The notes: generated by a model not told the origin, from the letters alone. A stretch of 54,183 bases of DNA from Thermoplasmatota archaeon (GCA_023484805.1 JAMDAM010000024.1:1-54183), one strand, 5' to 3'. Shown: positions 6,859 to 52,983, numbered from the stretch's first letter. Numbers and translations: made by a program.

Positions 6859-7875
6859 ATGGGGGATGTGGATCTCAGAACGATAATATTGGCTGATCTT
6901 CTCAAGCGAAAGGAGGCCGGAATATTGCAGAGCGAGATAGAGTCGGAATTTGGGTTTTCCCGTGCCCATGTCTCAGAGACGCTCTCTTTACTCATGAATG
7001 AAGGCAAGGTTCTGGAGAGGAAGGAGGGAAGGCTGTTGAAGAGGGTGTGGCTGGCAGAATATTTTCCCTACCCGATTGATGGTGTCATCAGGGTTTCAAT
7101 GCTTCCGTCCAGTGAATACGTGCCATTCCTTTCCTCAGCCATCGCTGTCTGCCGTTCCCGGAACATGACGGTGAAGGTGCGAATTCTAAAATCTCCTGCA
7201 GATGTAATGGACAGCCTTCTGTCTGGCAGCAGTGATATAGTACTTGCCCCCTTTTATTCCCAGATTATATATTCAATTGTTACCAGAAAGATCAAGCTGC
7301 TTTCCGCCATCGCTTCCGGTGGGTCTTCCATATTTTCAAGAGGAAGTGATGAGTCAGGTATACTGGGGACGTCGGACACGTCCACCATGATAATTTTGTC
7401 ACGCTACTTCCGGGAATCTCTCGGAAACGATGTGAATATCTACGAAGACCCGAATGATGCGATCAATGCATTTGAAAGCGGAAAATTCACCTACCTCACG
7501 ATTTGGGAACCCTACTGTTCCATACTTAGGCATAGAGGGACATACAGGGAGATACTGAAATACAATCAGGTGCTTGGGGATAACCCATGCTGCGTTTCTT
7601 CCTGCAGGGCTGATTCTTCTGAAAAAGCAAGAATCCTTTACATGGAAATAGCAGAGGATTACGCCAGGCTTATATTGCAGGGCATAAATCACAGCAGGAT
7701 GAGGGAGGCAACCGATCTGCTGGCTTCGGAAACAGGCGTCGGTCCGGAACTGATACTGGAGTCTCTCGAAAATTACAGTTTTGACGCAAGGATGGATGAA
7801 GGCACAGTTTTGAGGTACATGGATATCCTGAAGATTCCCGTTTCAATCAGGAGCATTCAGGATATGATTCCCTAG
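6859..7875 (+). CDS. HTH regulator with NMT1/SsuA-like ligand-binding domain
   Basis: A 338-residue soluble protein with no signal peptide. Residues 1-70 form a winged helix (LADLLKRKEAGILQSEIESEFGF, then SRAHVSETLSLLMNEGKVLE). Residues 77-330 resemble a type 2 periplasmic-binding fold of the NMT1/THI5/SsuA group: VIRVSMLPSSEYVPF, then MDSLLSGSSDIVLAPFY, then AINAFESGKFTYLTIWEPY. Such domains normally sit outside the cell and feed ABC importers; here one is fused to a DNA-binding domain, so it likely senses a small nitrogen, sulfur or pyrimidine-like ligand in the cytoplasm. The ATG is preceded by CTGAGGAAA. It probably controls the divergent permease. The ligand is unknown. Confidence 0.75.
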   Translation: MGDVDLRTIILADLLKRKEAGILQSEIESEFGFSRAHVSETLSLLMNEGKVLERKEGRLLKRVWLAEYFPYPIDGVIRVSMLPSSEYVPFLSSAIAVCRSRNMTVKVRILKSPADVMDSLLSGSSDIVLAPFYSQIIYSIVTRKIKLLSAIASGGSSIFSRGSDESGILGTSDTSTMIILSRYFRESLGNDVNIYEDPNDAINAFESGKFTYLTIWEPYCSILRHRGTYREILKYNQVLGDNPCCVSSCRADSSEKARILYMEIAEDYARLILQGINHSRMREATDLLASETGVGPELILESLENYSFDARMDEGTVLRYMDILKIPVSIRSIQDMIP

Positions 7876-47400: not shown

Positions 47401-47557
47401 TTTGGTGGTTCCCCCTCTGATATACGATTAGGATGCGATCTCATTATCGGTGCTGGGTTCGTCGCACTTTAATCGTTGCTACTTGACAGGACCCAAAATC
47501 GCTAAAAACATTTTAGATAGGAACAAAGTTCATAATTGCTATCGAGTTAACCAACAA

Positions 47558-47962
47558 ATGTTACCTCTGGATGAGGATGAATTCGCGCGGTGGTTCAAAT
47601 CAGCCGAGATTACTTTAAGGTCGGCCGCATCGGATCATAGTTCAGGGTTCTTCAACTGGTCGTGCTTCAAGTCGCAGCAAGCTGCTGAATTCGCAATAAA
47701 GGCATACCTTCGCGGGATAGGTTCACCCTCCTATGGTCACTCGATATCACACCTGCTCAAGGAAGGAGGATTTTCATCGAACCTGGTTGATCTGGGAAAG
47801 GTGCTTGATAAATACTATATTCCCACAAGGTACACAGATTCATGGTCTGAAGGTGTACCGGAAGATTATTACACCGTGAATGAGTCAAATGAATCAATGA
47901 AAATTTCAAGAAAGATCATCGAGGCAGTGATGAAAAAATGGACATTGTTGAAAAAAGGGTAA
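47558..47962 (+). CDS. HEPN-domain protein (putative toxin, pair 1)
   Basis: 134 residues from this ATG; an in-frame start at 47450 would add sequence unlike the family. FARWFKSAEITLRSA and NWSCFKSQQAAEFAIKAYLRG are the two HEPN helices, and SYGHSISHLL holds the conserved His region. HEPN proteins of this type pair with MNT nucleotidyltransferases; several are RNases neutralised by AMPylation. The 3' end overlaps the MNT gene by 25 nt. Confidence 0.85.
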   Translation: MLPLDEDEFARWFKSAEITLRSAASDHSSGFFNWSCFKSQQAAEFAIKAYLRGIGSPSYGHSISHLLKEGGFSSNLVDLGKVLDKYYIPTRYTDSWSEGVPEDYYTVNESNESMKISRKIIEAVMKKWTLLKKG

Positions 47963-48294
47963 TTCATAGGGAAGCCATCATAGCAGAGGCTTCCGCTTTT
48001 GCCAGCAGCTTGGACTTCAAGGTTAGCGCGTTTCTTATCGGTTCCTATTCCAGGGGTGATTTCAACCTTTGGAGCGATATAGACGTAGTTTTGATCTCAG
48101 ATTTTACTGGAAATATATTAGAGAGGCTGAAGAAACTGGATTTTCCATCCGGGTATGAAGTAATACCTCTGACCTTTGACGAGTTCCGTCATATGCTTTC
48201 CAAGAAAAACCCGATTTGCATGGAACTGAAATCTTCTGGTGTAACACTGAGGGATGACCTAGGGGTTACTGAATACATCACTAAACTCAAATGA
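47938..48294 (+). CDS. MNT nucleotidyltransferase (putative antitoxin, pair 1)
   Basis: 118 residues. The nucleotidyltransferase motif GSYSRGDFNLWSDIDVVL (GS followed by DxD) is complete, so the enzyme should be active. It overlaps the HEPN gene and forms a HEPN-MNT unit. The ATG lies within the end of the HEPN gene. Confidence 0.85.
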   Translation: MDIVEKRVIHREAIIAEASAFASSLDFKVSAFLIGSYSRGDFNLWSDIDVVLISDFTGNILERLKKLDFPSGYEVIPLTFDEFRHMLSKKNPICMELKSSGVTLRDDLGVTEYITKLK

Positions 48295-48565: not shown

Positions 48566-49540
48566 TTACTGGCGTTTCTCACTTGAATAAATCCGGTGGC
48601 GCATATCACGTGGATCACTGGTGACCCTAATCAGGTGCTGCGAAACAAGGGTATCTATGGCAATCTGTACAGTCCTCCGGTTGAGGCCCGTAATGCTGCC
48701 AATCTGTCCCTGATCCAGGGAAAGGTGTGAGGAAATTACATGATATACAAATTTTGTCGCCGGACTGCCAGAAACTTTCCCCGTTCCCGTAAAACCCCCA
48801 AAGTTATCTCCCCTGAAACCCGATCTCTGGCTTTGCAGTGGGAGAACACTTAGCAGGGAAACGTTTCCGAGATTTACACCTGGACCAAGCTTGGTTATGA
48901 GTTGCGCCTGCTGCTCTTCAAGGGGGGCTTCAAACATTATCTTTGATTGTCCAAAGCTCTCTATTATCCTCGAAACCCAGTCCCATTTGATGCGCCCATC
49001 ATTATCATATATCTCCACGCTCCTTCCGGTCTCCCGCCCCTCGATAATGACAAGATCTGGATCGAAGTCGAGCGCAGCGCTGATTCCATCTATGGTGTCC
49101 TCAAGAGACAGCTGGTTCCCTGCATTCTTCCTGCCGACCTCTATGTGCAGTTTCATGCCATGATCCCTGGCGAATTCAGCTGCCATTTTCTTCTCCCTTT
49201 TCGGTATGTCAATGATGCCTTCACTGAGCTCAATTACAGTAAAGCCAGCGTCAAGAATATGTTCCAGGGCTTTACTTGTCTTGTTCTTTGATGAAGCTAT
49301 TTCCAGCATTGTACCGCCATTGGACACGTCAATGCCATACTGCCGGTACATCTGCACTCGCTTCCTTACATCAGACTCCTCCAGGAGAAGAGGCAGTCCC
49401 CAGCCTATCTTTGCCACGGTAAAAAAGCTGTTTGACCATTCGAGGCTTTCCTGTATTCCCGGCAGCATGCGATCTATGACCATTGTTTTTGGTTTGGGAT
49501 CCAGATTATTCCTCTTAAGTTCATCAAAAAATAGTGCCAT
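48566..49540 (-). CDS. ComA-like phosphosulfolactate synthase fused to a winged-helix domain
   Basis: 324 residues from the ATG at 49540, which lies about 30 nt from a TATA-like box. Residues 1-250 match ComA, a TIM-barrel enzyme that joins sulfite and phosphoenolpyruvate: MVIDRMLPGIQESLEWSNSF, then FTVAKIGWGLPLL, VIIEGRETGRSVEIYD and IMFEAPLEEQQAQLI. Residues 255-324 are a MarR-like winged helix (LSLDQGQIGSITGLNRRTVQ, then RVTSDPRDMRHRIYS). ComA is the first step of coenzyme M synthesis, but no other CoM gene is here. The gene is divergent from cysH-sat, so it may be a regulator that senses sulfite, PEP or sulfolactate through the old enzyme domain. Confidence 0.82.
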   Translation of the reverse strand: MALFFDELKRNNLDPKPKTMVIDRMLPGIQESLEWSNSFFTVAKIGWGLPLLLEESDVRKRVQMYRQYGIDVSNGGTMLEIASSKNKTSKALEHILDAGFTVIELSEGIIDIPKREKKMAAEFARDHGMKLHIEVGRKNAGNQLSLEDTIDGISAALDFDPDLVIIEGRETGRSVEIYDNDGRIKWDWVSRIIESFGQSKIMFEAPLEEQQAQLITKLGPGVNLGNVSLLSVLPLQSQRSGFRGDNFGGFTGTGKVSGSPATKFVYHVISSHLSLDQGQIGSITGLNRRTVQIAIDTLVSQHLIRVTSDPRDMRHRIYSSEKRQ

Positions 49541-49563
49541 ATTTAAGATACGATAAATCAATA

Positions 49564-49602
49564 TGTAAATTTTGCTATAATATATTTACAAAACGTTGTA
49601 AA
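49564..49602. promoter_or_regulatory. Operator candidate between the ComA-HTH gene and cysH
   Basis: TTTACAAAACGTTGTAAA (49585-49602) is a perfect inverted repeat with 7-bp arms and a 4-nt spacer. A third half-site TGTAAAT at 49564-49570 is in inverted relation to ATTTACA (49584-49590). The block lies between TATA-like boxes for both directions (about 49563-49575 and 49641-49650), where one regulator could control both genes. Confidence 0.55.
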
Positions 49603-49667
49603 CTACATATAACATTCCTATATTACATGCTTGAAAATTCACATATATACCAGGCAAATAATGGACT

Positions 49668-50378
49668 ATGTTGGATGAAAAAATTGAGGAGTCTGTTGAT
49701 ATACTGGTCCGTGCATACAAAACACACGGTGATAGTGTGGTCTTCCTCACAAGCTTCAGCATGGAGGATAATGTAATCTCAGACCTTATGAGCAGGGCTG
49801 GTACGGGCATAAAGCATTTCACACTGGATACTGGCCGTATGCCCCAGGAGACATATGACATAATGGAGATAATTTCCAACAGGTATGGCATAATGCCCGA
49901 AATTGTCTTCCCGAGTACTGATGAAGTAGAGAACATGGTGAGGGCACATGGAATCAATCTCTTCAGGTCTTCTACATCCATGAGGGAACTGTGTTGTGAG
50001 ACTAGGAAAATAAGGCCATTGAATCGCATTCTATCCGATAAGAGGGCTTGGATTTCCGGCATAAGATCGGACCAGACAGGGTTTCGAGGGCAAAGCGAAA
50101 TAGTTGAGTCAGATCCCCTGCGCCCAGGGATAATGAAATACAATCCGTTACTGAACTGGAATTCAGATCATGTGAAGGAATACACGGGAAAATTCATGCT
50201 TCCGATCAATGCCCTGTATTCCAGGGGATACAGGAGCATAGGCTGCGCTCCCTGCACAAGAGCAGTCCTGCCGCATGAAAGTGAACGGAGCGGGAGGTGG
50301 TGGTGGGAGGACGGAATAAAAGAGTGTGGCATCCACGCGCCAGTCCGATTCAAGCCTGTCATGCGGGAAGAAGAGTAA
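49668..50378 (+). CDS. cysH: Assimilatory APS/PAPS reductase, Fe-S type
   Basis: 236 residues. The 4Fe-4S cysteine pattern of APS reductases is complete: C109-C110 in ELCCETRK and C193-x-x-C196 in GCAPCTR. The catalytic Cys is C220 in KECGIH near the C-terminus. It reduces activated sulfate to sulfite with thioredoxin or a similar donor. The Fe-S cluster suggests that APS, made by the next gene, is the direct substrate. ATG about 22-25 nt after a TATA-like box. Confidence 0.93.
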   Translation: MLDEKIEESVDILVRAYKTHGDSVVFLTSFSMEDNVISDLMSRAGTGIKHFTLDTGRMPQETYDIMEIISNRYGIMPEIVFPSTDEVENMVRAHGINLFRSSTSMRELCCETRKIRPLNRILSDKRAWISGIRSDQTGFRGQSEIVESDPLRPGIMKYNPLLNWNSDHVKEYTGKFMLPINALYSRGYRSIGCAPCTRAVLPHESERSGRWWWEDGIKECGIHAPVRFKPVMREEE

Positions 50379-50379
50379 A

Positions 50380-51510
50380 ATGGTTTCAAAACCGCATGGG
50401 GGGAAGCTTGTCAATGTAGGGAAGCTGAGCCCAGAATCATTTGGGCAGAAGGGCCTGTCCATAGAAGTTGATTCAAGGACTTCTATTAACCTCTTACTGA
50501 TAAAAACTGGCGTATTCAGTCCCCTGGTGTCATTCAACACACGGGAGGATTATGATAGCATCCTGAGGGAACAGAGAATGGGGAATGGCATACCATGGTC
50601 AATACCCATAATCCTTGACGTTGATCCAGAGAAATTCAGGGTCTCGGAGGGAGATACAATCATATTGAGGCGCGACGGCCATTATCTTGCTGAAATGTAC
50701 GTTGATGATATGTGGGAATTCAATAAGGGGGAATTCAGTGACAGGATATTTGGAACAGGGGACATTAGGCATCCGGGTGTAGCAAAAATGCAGGAGATGG
50801 GGTCGATGATTTTATCAGGGAAAGTTATGGGCATATCAGATCAGGACATGCCCTTCAAAGAATATTTCCTGCCTCCGGAACAGACAAGAAAGCTGTTCCA
50901 GAGCAGGTCATGGAAAACAATAGCTGCCTTCCAGACCAGAAATATACCACATCTTGGTCATGAGTACCTGCAGAAGTCCGCGCTGAATATGGTAGACGGC
51001 CTTTTCATCAATCCTGTAATAGGAAGGAAAAAGGCAGGCGATTTCAGTGATAAAATAATAGTGGGCGCTTATGATCGTGTCCTTAAATCCTATTACCCTG
51101 CTGAAAGGGTACTGTTTTCCGTACTGCATTACGAGATGTATTATGCCGGCCCGAGGGAGGCAGTGATGCACGCAATAATGAGGAAGAATTTCGGCTGCAC
51201 ACATTTGATAATAGGCAGAGATCACGCAGGTGTTGGTGATTACTACCCTCCATACGCAGCGTGGAAGAATCTGGAAGCATTTGACGACCTGGGCATCGAA
51301 ATCATCCCATTTGAGGAGGCCGTTTACTGCACGGCATGCAAATGGATCACGACAGTCAAATGCTGCCCCCACGGAGAGGACATGAGAATCAGGTTCAGTG
51401 CCTCGATGATAAGGGAGAAATTGCAGAAAAGGCTGGACATTCCGATAGAGATAATGCGGGGTGACGAGGTAGAATGGATCAGGGGGCAGGAGGATATCTT
51501 TGTAACCTGA
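50380..51510 (+). CDS. sat: ATP sulfurylase (sulfate adenylyltransferase)
   Basis: 376 residues. The two ATP-binding motifs are present: QTRNIPHLGHEY from Q185 and GRDHAGVGDYY from G279. It makes APS from ATP and sulfate. The ATG at 50380 follows the cysH stop by 1 nt and is preceded by GAAGAAGAG, so it was preferred to an upstream in-frame start. cysH and sat form an operon for sulfate activation and reduction. Confidence 0.95.
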   Translation: MVSKPHGGKLVNVGKLSPESFGQKGLSIEVDSRTSINLLLIKTGVFSPLVSFNTREDYDSILREQRMGNGIPWSIPIILDVDPEKFRVSEGDTIILRRDGHYLAEMYVDDMWEFNKGEFSDRIFGTGDIRHPGVAKMQEMGSMILSGKVMGISDQDMPFKEYFLPPEQTRKLFQSRSWKTIAAFQTRNIPHLGHEYLQKSALNMVDGLFINPVIGRKKAGDFSDKIIVGAYDRVLKSYYPAERVLFSVLHYEMYYAGPREAVMHAIMRKNFGCTHLIIGRDHAGVGDYYPPYAAWKNLEAFDDLGIEIIPFEEAVYCTACKWITTVKCCPHGEDMRIRFSASMIREKLQKRLDIPIEIMRGDEVEWIRGQEDIFVT

Positions 51511-52280: not shown

Positions 52281-52688
52281 GTGTATGAATTGACCGCCAT
52301 AGATGAGTACCAGATCCTGAAGTCCAGGTCTGAAGAATTCCTGGACTCAGCGGAATATCAGTTTGATAAGGGTTATTTTACCATTGCAGCGTTCAGTTTC
52401 CACCAGTCACTGGAACTCTTTCTCAAGAGCAGGCTGCTTATTCGCGGCGTAGAATATCCGCGTACACATTCCCTAAAAAGCTTAATTGAGATCATTTCGA
52501 ATGTTACAGAAAAAAAGTGTTCTGTAGCCGCCAGGGAATTGCTAAACACATACATTCTAGAACTGGCACTGTTAGAGGATGCGTACATCACATCCAGATA
52601 CTTTTCAAGAGAGTATTCAAGGGAGGAGATTATCAAGCTTCAAACGGTTGCAAGGGAGGTTGTAAAAGCAATTGGAAACAGCTGTTGA
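52281..52688 (+). CDS. HEPN-domain protein (putative toxin, pair 2)
   Basis: 135 residues, GTG start. RSEEFLDSAEYQFDKGYFTI and AAFSFHQSLELFLKSRLLIRG are the HEPN helices, and VEYPRTHSLKSLIEI holds the conserved His. It overlaps the following MNT gene by 17 nt. Its sequence differs much from pair 1, so the two pairs are not recent copies. Confidence 0.83.
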   Translation: MYELTAIDEYQILKSRSEEFLDSAEYQFDKGYFTIAAFSFHQSLELFLKSRLLIRGVEYPRTHSLKSLIEIISNVTEKKCSVAARELLNTYILELALLEDAYITSRYFSREYSREEIIKLQTVAREVVKAIGNSC

Positions 52689-52983
52689 AGCCGCTAACAG
52701 AAGAAAGCAGATATTCAGTCACCTTTCTGAAAATCTCATAGGAATACGAGATGCTGTGCTGAAACTGGACAAAGATGCCAGATTCTACTTGTTTGGCTCC
52801 GTACCTGCTGGAACTTCCATCCTCTCTAGTGACATAGACATTTTGATAATAACTGATCTTCCTGTCGAGGTCGTGATCAGTAATCTATGGAAAAGTGGAT
52901 TCTCCGACCCATTTGAGTTTCATGTGAGGAGTCAGGACAACTTCGTAATGTATAGAAATGTCAAAAATTTGACACCTTTCTGA
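52672..52983 (+). CDS. MNT nucleotidyltransferase (putative antitoxin, pair 2)
   Basis: 103 residues, TTG start inside the end of the HEPN gene. FGSVPAGTSILSSDIDILI contains the GS and DxD motifs. The Arg usually found after GS is Ala-Gly here. The second half matches the usual MNT size. Confidence 0.8.
   Translation: METAVEAANRRKQIFSHLSENLIGIRDAVLKLDKDARFYLFGSVPAGTSILSSDIDILIITDLPVEVVISNLWKSGFSDPFEFHVRSQDNFVMYRNVKNLTPF

What the first reader, a model, noticed from the sequence alone, without database searches (positions are those of the whole stretch)
48566..51510. ComA-winged-helix fusion controlling sulfate assimilation?
A coenzyme M enzyme domain (phosphosulfolactate synthase) is fused to a MarR-like winged helix. 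It is divergent from cysH-sat and shares a 127-bp control region that contains a clear palindrome. No other coenzyme M gene is nearby. The natural reading is a one-protein switch in which a sulfite- and PEP-binding barrel senses the end product of sulfate reduction and controls cysH-sat. I do not know of a described regulator of this kind.
Basis: partly seen in the sequence, partly recalled or inferred. Interest (0 to 1): 0.78.

Follow-up and report, generated by a model that had tools for sequence, protein, structure and literature searches.

The report
Enzyme-derived sulfur regulator in archaea
An archaeal protein that joins a sulfite-using enzyme domain to a DNA-binding domain appears to be an undescribed gene switch for sulfur uptake and sulfate reduction, found with nearly the same DNA signature in two distantly related groups of archaea.

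Summary
Window 48566-49540 (-) encodes a 324-aa protein: a phosphosulfolactate-synthase (ComA) barrel plus a MarR-like winged helix, divergent from cysH-sat. In its family (77 genomes) no genome has cysH without this fusion (36 have both, 2 the fusion alone, 39 neither; p = 6e-20), and 35 of the 36 keep the divergent pair. The fusion is one clade spanning Thermoplasmatota and Nitrososphaerota. De novo search of the fusion-cysH intergenic regions gives the palindrome ATATGnAAAwTTTnCATAT. That model, trained only on Thermoplasmata, finds sites before the fusion in 17 of 28 Nitrososphaerota loci; an independent search there gives TATATGCAAAATTTGCATATA. In Nitrososphaerota the sites also precede sulfonate-type ABC transporter genes and a gene for a 20%-cysteine protein. 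There the barrel has lost catalytic residues while the DNA-contacting helix is invariant. The best reading is a one-component sulfur-acquisition regulator with an enzyme-derived sensor. Most cysH genomes lack a siroheme sulfite reductase but have a sulfosugar synthase, so sulfite itself may be the product.

The parts
48566..49540 (-). ComA-winged-helix fusion protein, 324 aa, ATG at 49540
   Evidence: orthologues start at the same place
48797..49486 (-). ComA-like (beta/alpha)8 barrel, aa 19-248; catalytic residues retained
   Evidence: PF02679 3.8e-60; 34% identity to 1QWG over the barrel, TM 0.88; residue table
48578..48769 (-). C-terminal MarR-like winged helix, aa 258-321; invariant R288, T290, Q292, R314, Y318 in the recognition helix and wing
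49541..49667 (.). shared divergent control region between the fusion gene and cysH
   Evidence: spacer length is conserved, about 103-144 bp in most orthologous loci
49561..49579 (.). best match of the family operator in this window (ATATGTAAATTTTGCTATA), overlapping the probable TATA box of the fusion gene; ATATGTAAATWTTGC is the same in all four genus members, including one that lost cysH-sat
   Evidence: weak on its own (6.2 bits held out, 40 of 200 shuffles as good)
   Evidence: 57 of 300 shuffles; absent in L025
49598..49606 (.). GTAAACTAC, aligned with GCAAATTGC in the closest relative (paired changes), at the position the operator holds in other clades
   Evidence: inference from two sequences only
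49668..50378 (+). cysH, assimilatory APS/PAPS reductase with CC...CxxC cluster motif and C-terminal ECGIH
50380..51510 (+). sat, ATP sulfurylase

Best explanation
The protein is a one-component transcription factor. Its ComA-derived barrel is the sensor and its C-terminal MarR-like winged helix is the DNA-binding part. It binds, presumably as a dimer, the palindrome ATATGnAAAwTTTnCATAT in the shared promoter region and sets expression of cysH-sat and of itself according to sulfur status. In Nitrososphaerota the same family controls sulfonate-type transporter genes and a cysteine-rich protein gene. Shown here by comparative genomics: the domain architecture and its single origin, the tight coupling to cysH, a conserved operator in two phyla, sites upstream of several target genes, and loss of catalytic residues in one branch while the recognition helix stays invariant. 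Inferred: actual DNA binding; dimerisation; autorepression from sites 17-35 bp before the fusion start and activation from sites 55-77 bp before target starts; and the ligand (sulfite, PEP, phosphosulfolactate or a related sulfonate in Thermoplasmata; unknown and probably changed in Nitrososphaerota). In the window's own genus the cysH-side operator is not clearly recognisable, so control of cysH here rests on orthologues.
For: Co-occurrence in the family: fusion and cysH 36, fusion alone 2, cysH alone 0, neither 39; Fisher p = 6e-20. 35 of 36 keep a divergent fusion/cysH pair. cysH or sat is also next to the fusion in a second Thermoplasmata clade (L135, L136, L141, L138). Fusions form one clade apart from stand-alone ComA, support 100/100. 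Palindromic motif search on 28 spacers: log-likelihood 128 against a shuffled mean of 38, max 47. Leave-clade-out sites: at most 8 of 200 shuffles as good in 23 of 36 loci. The Thermoplasmata model finds sites in Nitrososphaerota in 17 of 28 loci (at most 1 of 60 shuffles), and an independent search gives the same palindrome, 158 against about 40. Sites also precede ssuB and ssuA. A blind genome pattern search led to a cysteine-rich DUF326 gene; eight homologues of it carry sites at -41 to -140, 14-24 bits, against 0 of 138 background regions. In 33 Nitrososphaerota fusions E134->K, R169->N and N226->E are fixed while R288, T290, Q292, R314 are invariant. TIGR01728 SsuA above cut-off for the transporter.
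Against: In the window itself the family operator is weak (6.2 bits held out, 40 of 200 shuffles) and sits on the fusion's own promoter; clades g11, E and g17 are also weak or lack it. In G034, where cysH lies away from the fusion, no site precedes cysH. G003 kept the fusion after losing cysH-sat, so cysH is not its only role. The GC-rich Thermoplasmata clade shows no site with these models. The SQD1-like sulfosugar synthase gene has no site in the 10 upstream regions tested. Second fusion paralogues (L078, L081, L083) lie by unrelated genes without clear sites. More distant DUF326 homologues (L264, L266-L268, L270) also lack sites. The active site is intact in Thermoplasmata, so catalysis is not excluded. 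No binding or expression data exist.
Confidence: 0.74

Rival explanations
1. Enzyme first: the protein is a working phosphosulfolactate synthase that captures sulfite made by Sat-CysH onto PEP, and the winged helix only autoregulates its gene or has a structural role.
For: All canonical catalytic positions are retained in nearly all of 48 fusions, most of them from Thermoplasmata; the partner genes make sulfite; NIR_SIR sulfite reductase is missing in 33 of 36 cysH genomes, so sulfite needs a sink; ComB-family genes are present.
Against: ComB-family genes occur in 72 of 77 genomes whether or not the fusion is present, so they do not track it. The fusion misses the TIGR03849 equivalog cut-off (206.7 < 280). 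In Nitrososphaerota the catalytic residues are gone but the winged helix, operator and sulfur-gene linkage remain. An alternative sulfite sink, an SQD1-like enzyme, is in 68 of 77 genomes.
Confidence: 0.13
2. Trigger enzyme: in Thermoplasmata the barrel is both catalytically active and the sensor, so sulfite/PEP turnover and gene control are one act; catalysis was later lost in Nitrososphaerota. (This is a sub-case of the best explanation, not exclusive of it.)
For: Intact active site in Thermoplasmata and in the Nitrososphaerota-labelled pair L110/L111, but a degenerate one in the main Nitrososphaerota clade, all with the same winged helix and a like operator.
Against: No activity data; residue retention could equally preserve ligand binding alone.
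Confidence: 0.3
3. The conserved palindrome is only a promoter element (BRE/TATA) of the divergent promoters, not an operator of this protein.
For: In the window's genus the best match overlaps the probable TATA box; the motif is AT-rich.
Against: Most sites lie 55-66 bp from the start codons, outside the expected TATA positions; unrelated spacers in the same loci score at most 9.1 bits; the motif contains G and C at fixed palindromic positions; it recurs in another phylum before the fusion, ssu genes and one cysteine-rich gene and is absent at Nitrososphaerota fusions that lack the transporter (0 of 8, against 17 of 20 with it; tally).
Confidence: 0.08
4. In Nitrososphaerota the regulon is about copper or thiol stress, not sulfur, since the cysteine-rich target resembles copper-storage proteins.
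For: Target is a 24-Cys, 118-aa DUF326 protein; ammonia oxidisers have a high copper demand (general knowledge).
Against: The transporter is of the sulfonate (SsuA) family above the curated cut-off, and the Thermoplasmata relatives sit on sulfate assimilation genes; a protein with 20% cysteine is itself a sulfur-budget item.
Confidence: 0.15

Closest known systems
ComA, (2R)-phospho-3-sulfolactate synthase (Methanocaldococcus jannaschii, 1QWG; Bacillus YitD, 1U83)
   Same: Barrel fold, 34% identity to 1QWG and nearly all conserved active-site residues in Thermoplasmata
   Different: Extra winged helix, separate clade, not with coenzyme M genes, below the TIGR03849 cut-off; catalytic residues lost in Nitrososphaerota
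MarR/SlyA-type winged-helix regulators
   Same: Topology and weak profile match of the 75-aa C-domain; palindromic operator
   Different: Window domain is below Pfam gathering cut-offs; lacks MarR's own dimerisation helices; the barrel replaces the sensor
MocR regulators (GntR winged helix fused to an aminotransferase-like sensor; PMC5320631)
   Same: Enzyme fold reused as sensor of a one-component regulator; some MocR proteins control taurine metabolism
   Different: Unrelated enzyme, unrelated winged helix, opposite domain order (from general knowledge), bacterial
CysB/Cbl of enteric bacteria (general knowledge)
   Same: Regulation of sulfate assimilation and sulfonate uptake, with autorepression
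   Different: LysR family with a periplasmic-binding-like sensor; no sequence relation

Membership tests
ComA phosphosulfolactate synthase | PF02679 match over cut-off | tested here: met
   203.8 bits, cut-off 25.2
ComA phosphosulfolactate synthase | NCBI equivalog TIGR03849 over its cut-off | tested here: not met
   206.7 bits, cut-off 280
ComA phosphosulfolactate synthase | conserved active-site residues | tested here: met
   K44, W47, E80, E104, E134, K138, E167, R169, E204, Q211, N226, R239, R243, D245 in the window; not met in 33 Nitrososphaerota members
ComA phosphosulfolactate synthase | synthesis of phosphosulfolactate | not testable with these tools
   needs assay
ComA phosphosulfolactate synthase | context of coenzyme M or sulfolactate genes | tested here: inconclusive
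   ComB family in 72 of 77 genomes regardless of the fusion; none adjacent
MarR family | winged-helix fold | tested here: met
   AlphaFold2 and Foldseek
MarR family | Pfam MarR/MarR_2 over gathering cut-off | tested here: not met
   22.0 bits for the window's domain alone, cut-off 27
MarR family | terminal helices forming the MarR dimer interface | tested here: not met
   model holds three helices and a two-strand wing only
MocR-type enzyme-regulator fusions | GntR-type winged helix plus aminotransferase domain | tested here: not met
   domains are ComA and MarR-like
one-component regulator (functional class) | specific DNA operator linked to own and target genes | tested here: met
   by comparative genomics only
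one-component regulator (functional class) | ligand-dependent DNA binding | not testable with these tools
   needs purified protein

The most novel reading that the evidence does not exclude
A widespread archaeal sulfur regulator arose by fusing phosphosulfolactate synthase to a winged helix. In Thermoplasmata it is still a working enzyme whose turnover of sulfite and PEP gates transcription (a trigger enzyme); in ammonia-oxidising archaea it lost catalysis and became a pure sensor controlling sulfonate-type uptake and a cysteine-rich protein.
Probability: 0.3. Interest if true: 0.9.

Novelty: new variant of a known kind. Interest (0 to 1): 0.8.

Why it matters
I found no described regulator of sulfate assimilation in Thermoplasmatota or of sulfonate-type uptake in ammonia-oxidising archaea in the papers held, and no mention of this fusion. 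The protein offers a defined operator and a defined set of targets, so archaeal sulfur control becomes directly testable. It is also a clean case of an enzyme turning into a transcriptional sensor, with both the catalytically intact and the degenerate stages preserved in living lineages.

Tried and rejected
SQD1 gene as a further target: no site in 10 usable upstream regions; 20 others lacked the sequence tag used to place the gene. Site before the unlinked cysH of G034: none. Site in the GC-rich Thermoplasmata clade: none with either model. Other genome-wide pattern hits in Nitrososphaerota: mostly inside ORFs or unrelated, at rates near the reversed-pattern control in several genomes; only fusion, ssu and cysteine-rich loci recur. 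The K209->E change as a fusion signature: rejected, because stand-alone Sulfobacillus ComAs recovered also carry E, and one search's search pattern itself selects for E. Literature searches for a described ComA-winged-helix regulator gave nothing.

Full report
Observation. The window lies in a 1.09-Mb, 71%-complete Thermoplasmata-type MAG. The ORF at 48566-49540 (-) is ComA by Pfam (3.8e-60) with a sub-threshold MarR_2 match at aa 269-314. AlphaFold2 on an alignment of 30 relatives gives mean pLDDT 91, with a barrel to about residue 245, a short low-confidence linker (249-253) and then a three-helix, two-strand winged helix. The whole model matches M. jannaschii ComA 1QWG (TM 0.88 by target), and the C-domain folded alone matches MarR proteins. 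cysH and sat are standard. The claimed palindrome is the weak point: 57 of 300 shuffles have arms as long, and the closest relative (94% protein identity) does not keep it.

Linkage. Among 77 genomes of the family, 38 have the fusion and 36 have an assimilatory cysH (weak matches with E > 1e-6 not counted). All 36 cysH genomes have the fusion. The two with fusion only are G003, a 96%-complete genus member that lost cysH-sat but kept the surrounding genes, and G355, where the fusion lies at a contig end. Fisher p = 6e-20; genomes are related, so this is a descriptive number. In 35 of 36 the genes are divergent neighbours, with a spacer of about 103-144 bp in most loci. Only G034 has them apart.

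Wider family. A scan of named genomes found the fusion in GC-rich soil and acid Thermoplasmata and in Nitrososphaerota: Nitrososphaera, Nitrosocosmicus, Nitrosopolaris and groundwater lineages (the scan pattern FEAP[LI]ExQQ limits what it could see). In the second Thermoplasmata clade cysH or sat is again next to the fusion in four loci. In Nitrososphaerota about two thirds of the fusion loci (24 of 35 by my count) have genes of an ABC transporter whose binding protein passes the aliphatic-sulfonate family cut-off. The ComA-domain tree puts all fusions in one branch, 100/100, apart from stand-alone ComA.

Sensor domain. In Thermoplasmata the catalytic positions of ComA are kept. In 33 Nitrososphaerota fusions E134 is K, R169 is N and N226 is E in every case, and W47, G108, R243 and D245 are replaced in nearly all, while the winged-helix residues R288, T290, Q292 and R314 are invariant and D312 and Y318 differ in only one sequence each. 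The two groundwater loci L110/L111, next to the same transporter type, still have the intact active site. So the DNA-binding part is under stronger constraint than catalysis, which favours a regulator over a plain enzyme.

Operator. A palindromic EM search on 28 non-redundant fusion-cysH spacers gives ATATGnAAAwTTTnCATAT, log-likelihood 128 against a shuffled mean of 38 and maximum 47. With each clade held out, 23 of 36 loci score 9.5 bits or more and have at most 8 of 200 shuffles as good, mostly at 55-66 bp from the start codons. Unrelated spacers in the same loci reach at most 9.1 bits (the model was trained on the scored sites there). The strongest test is across phyla: this model scores at the level of at most 1 of 60 shuffles upstream of 17 of 28 Nitrososphaerota fusions, and a fresh search there gives TATATGCAAAATTTGCATATA, 158 against about 40. 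By my tally, 17 of the 20 loci with the transporter have the site and 0 of 8 without it do.

Regulon in Nitrososphaerota. Sites also lie about 50-117 bp upstream of ssuB and ssuA in many loci. A genome-wide pattern search led, without prior expectation, to a 118-aa protein with 24 cysteines (DUF326). A follow-up search found its homologues in 7 of 24 genomes. Eight of them carry one to three sites at -41 to -140, often 50-53 bp apart (about five helical turns), at 14-24 bits. None of 138 background upstream regions reaches 14. Five more distant homologues lack sites. One of the eight (L262) comes from a genome not used to build the site model from its own fusion, and scores 24.2 bits.

Window-specific caveat. 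In the window's genus the best match is ATATGTAAATTTTGCTATA at 49561-49579, over the probable TATA box of the fusion gene. Its first 15 bases (with one A/T difference) are the same in all four genus members, including G003, where the site is fuller (15.4 bits). On its own the window match is not significant (40 of 200 shuffles). Control of cysH in this genome is therefore inferred from orthologues.

What the pathway makes. NIR_SIR sulfite reductase domains are found in only 3 of the 36 cysH genomes, although the same search finds them in 10 family genomes and 11 of 14 controls. A UDP-sulfoquinovose synthase (SQD1) homologue at about 40-57% identity to the plant enzyme is in 68 of 77 genomes, including the window's own (C28:4597-5328; the query was checked against 1QRR). 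Thermoplasma acidophilum carries 6-C-sulfofucose in its N-glycan (Vinogradov 2012, cited in PMC12448462). So the sulfite from Sat-CysH probably serves sulfosugars, and other sulfite reductases were not sought. This fits a sulfite-binding sensor but does not prove one.

Mechanism. Most likely the dimeric protein binds the palindrome through its C-domain and changes affinity or geometry when the barrel binds its ligand. Sites close to the fusion start suggest autorepression, and sites 55-77 bp before target starts suggest activation; both are inferences from position. The ligand is unknown; sulfite, PEP, phosphosulfolactate and sulfolactate are the first candidates in Thermoplasmata.

Known or new. 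The two domains are known; this combination, its operator and its targets are not described in the library searched. It works like other regulators with enzyme-derived sensors such as MocR (PMC5320631) and fills the role CysB has in enteric bacteria, without being a member of either family.

Noticed in passing
window 6859-7875 (+): 338-aa ORF with an N-terminal winged helix (DUF7343, 4.5e-6, just under cut-off) followed by a region that by eye resembles SsuA/NMT1 binding proteins: possibly another sensor-regulator fusion.
   Followed up: partly
G003:C6:36219-37945, G018:C4:108211-109931, G023:C142, G343:C10, G349:C72 and others: Pairs of adjacent NIR_SIR ORFs that look like dissimilatory sulfite reductase DsrAB in Thermoplasmataceae-type MAGs.
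   Followed up: no
G000:C28:4597-5328 and 67 other family genomes: SQD1-like UDP-sulfoquinovose synthase nearly universal in the family.
   Followed up: partly
L240:3329-3685, L258-L263, L265: 118-aa, 24-cysteine DUF326 protein of Nitrososphaerota with operators upstream, often in tandem 50-53 bp apart.
   Followed up: yes
L047:7641-7868 and L093:5011-5244: Stand-alone 75-77-aa winged helix related to the fusion's C-domain, next to peroxiredoxin and AhpD-like genes in G020/G326.
   Followed up: partly
L078, L081, L083, L104: Second fusion paralogue beside a conserved housekeeping cluster, without cysH and without a clear operator.
   Followed up: partly
window 47450-48294 and 52281-52983: Two small gene pairs next to the locus: the first is a HEPN protein with a nucleotidyltransferase; the second looks alike by eye.
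   Followed up: no
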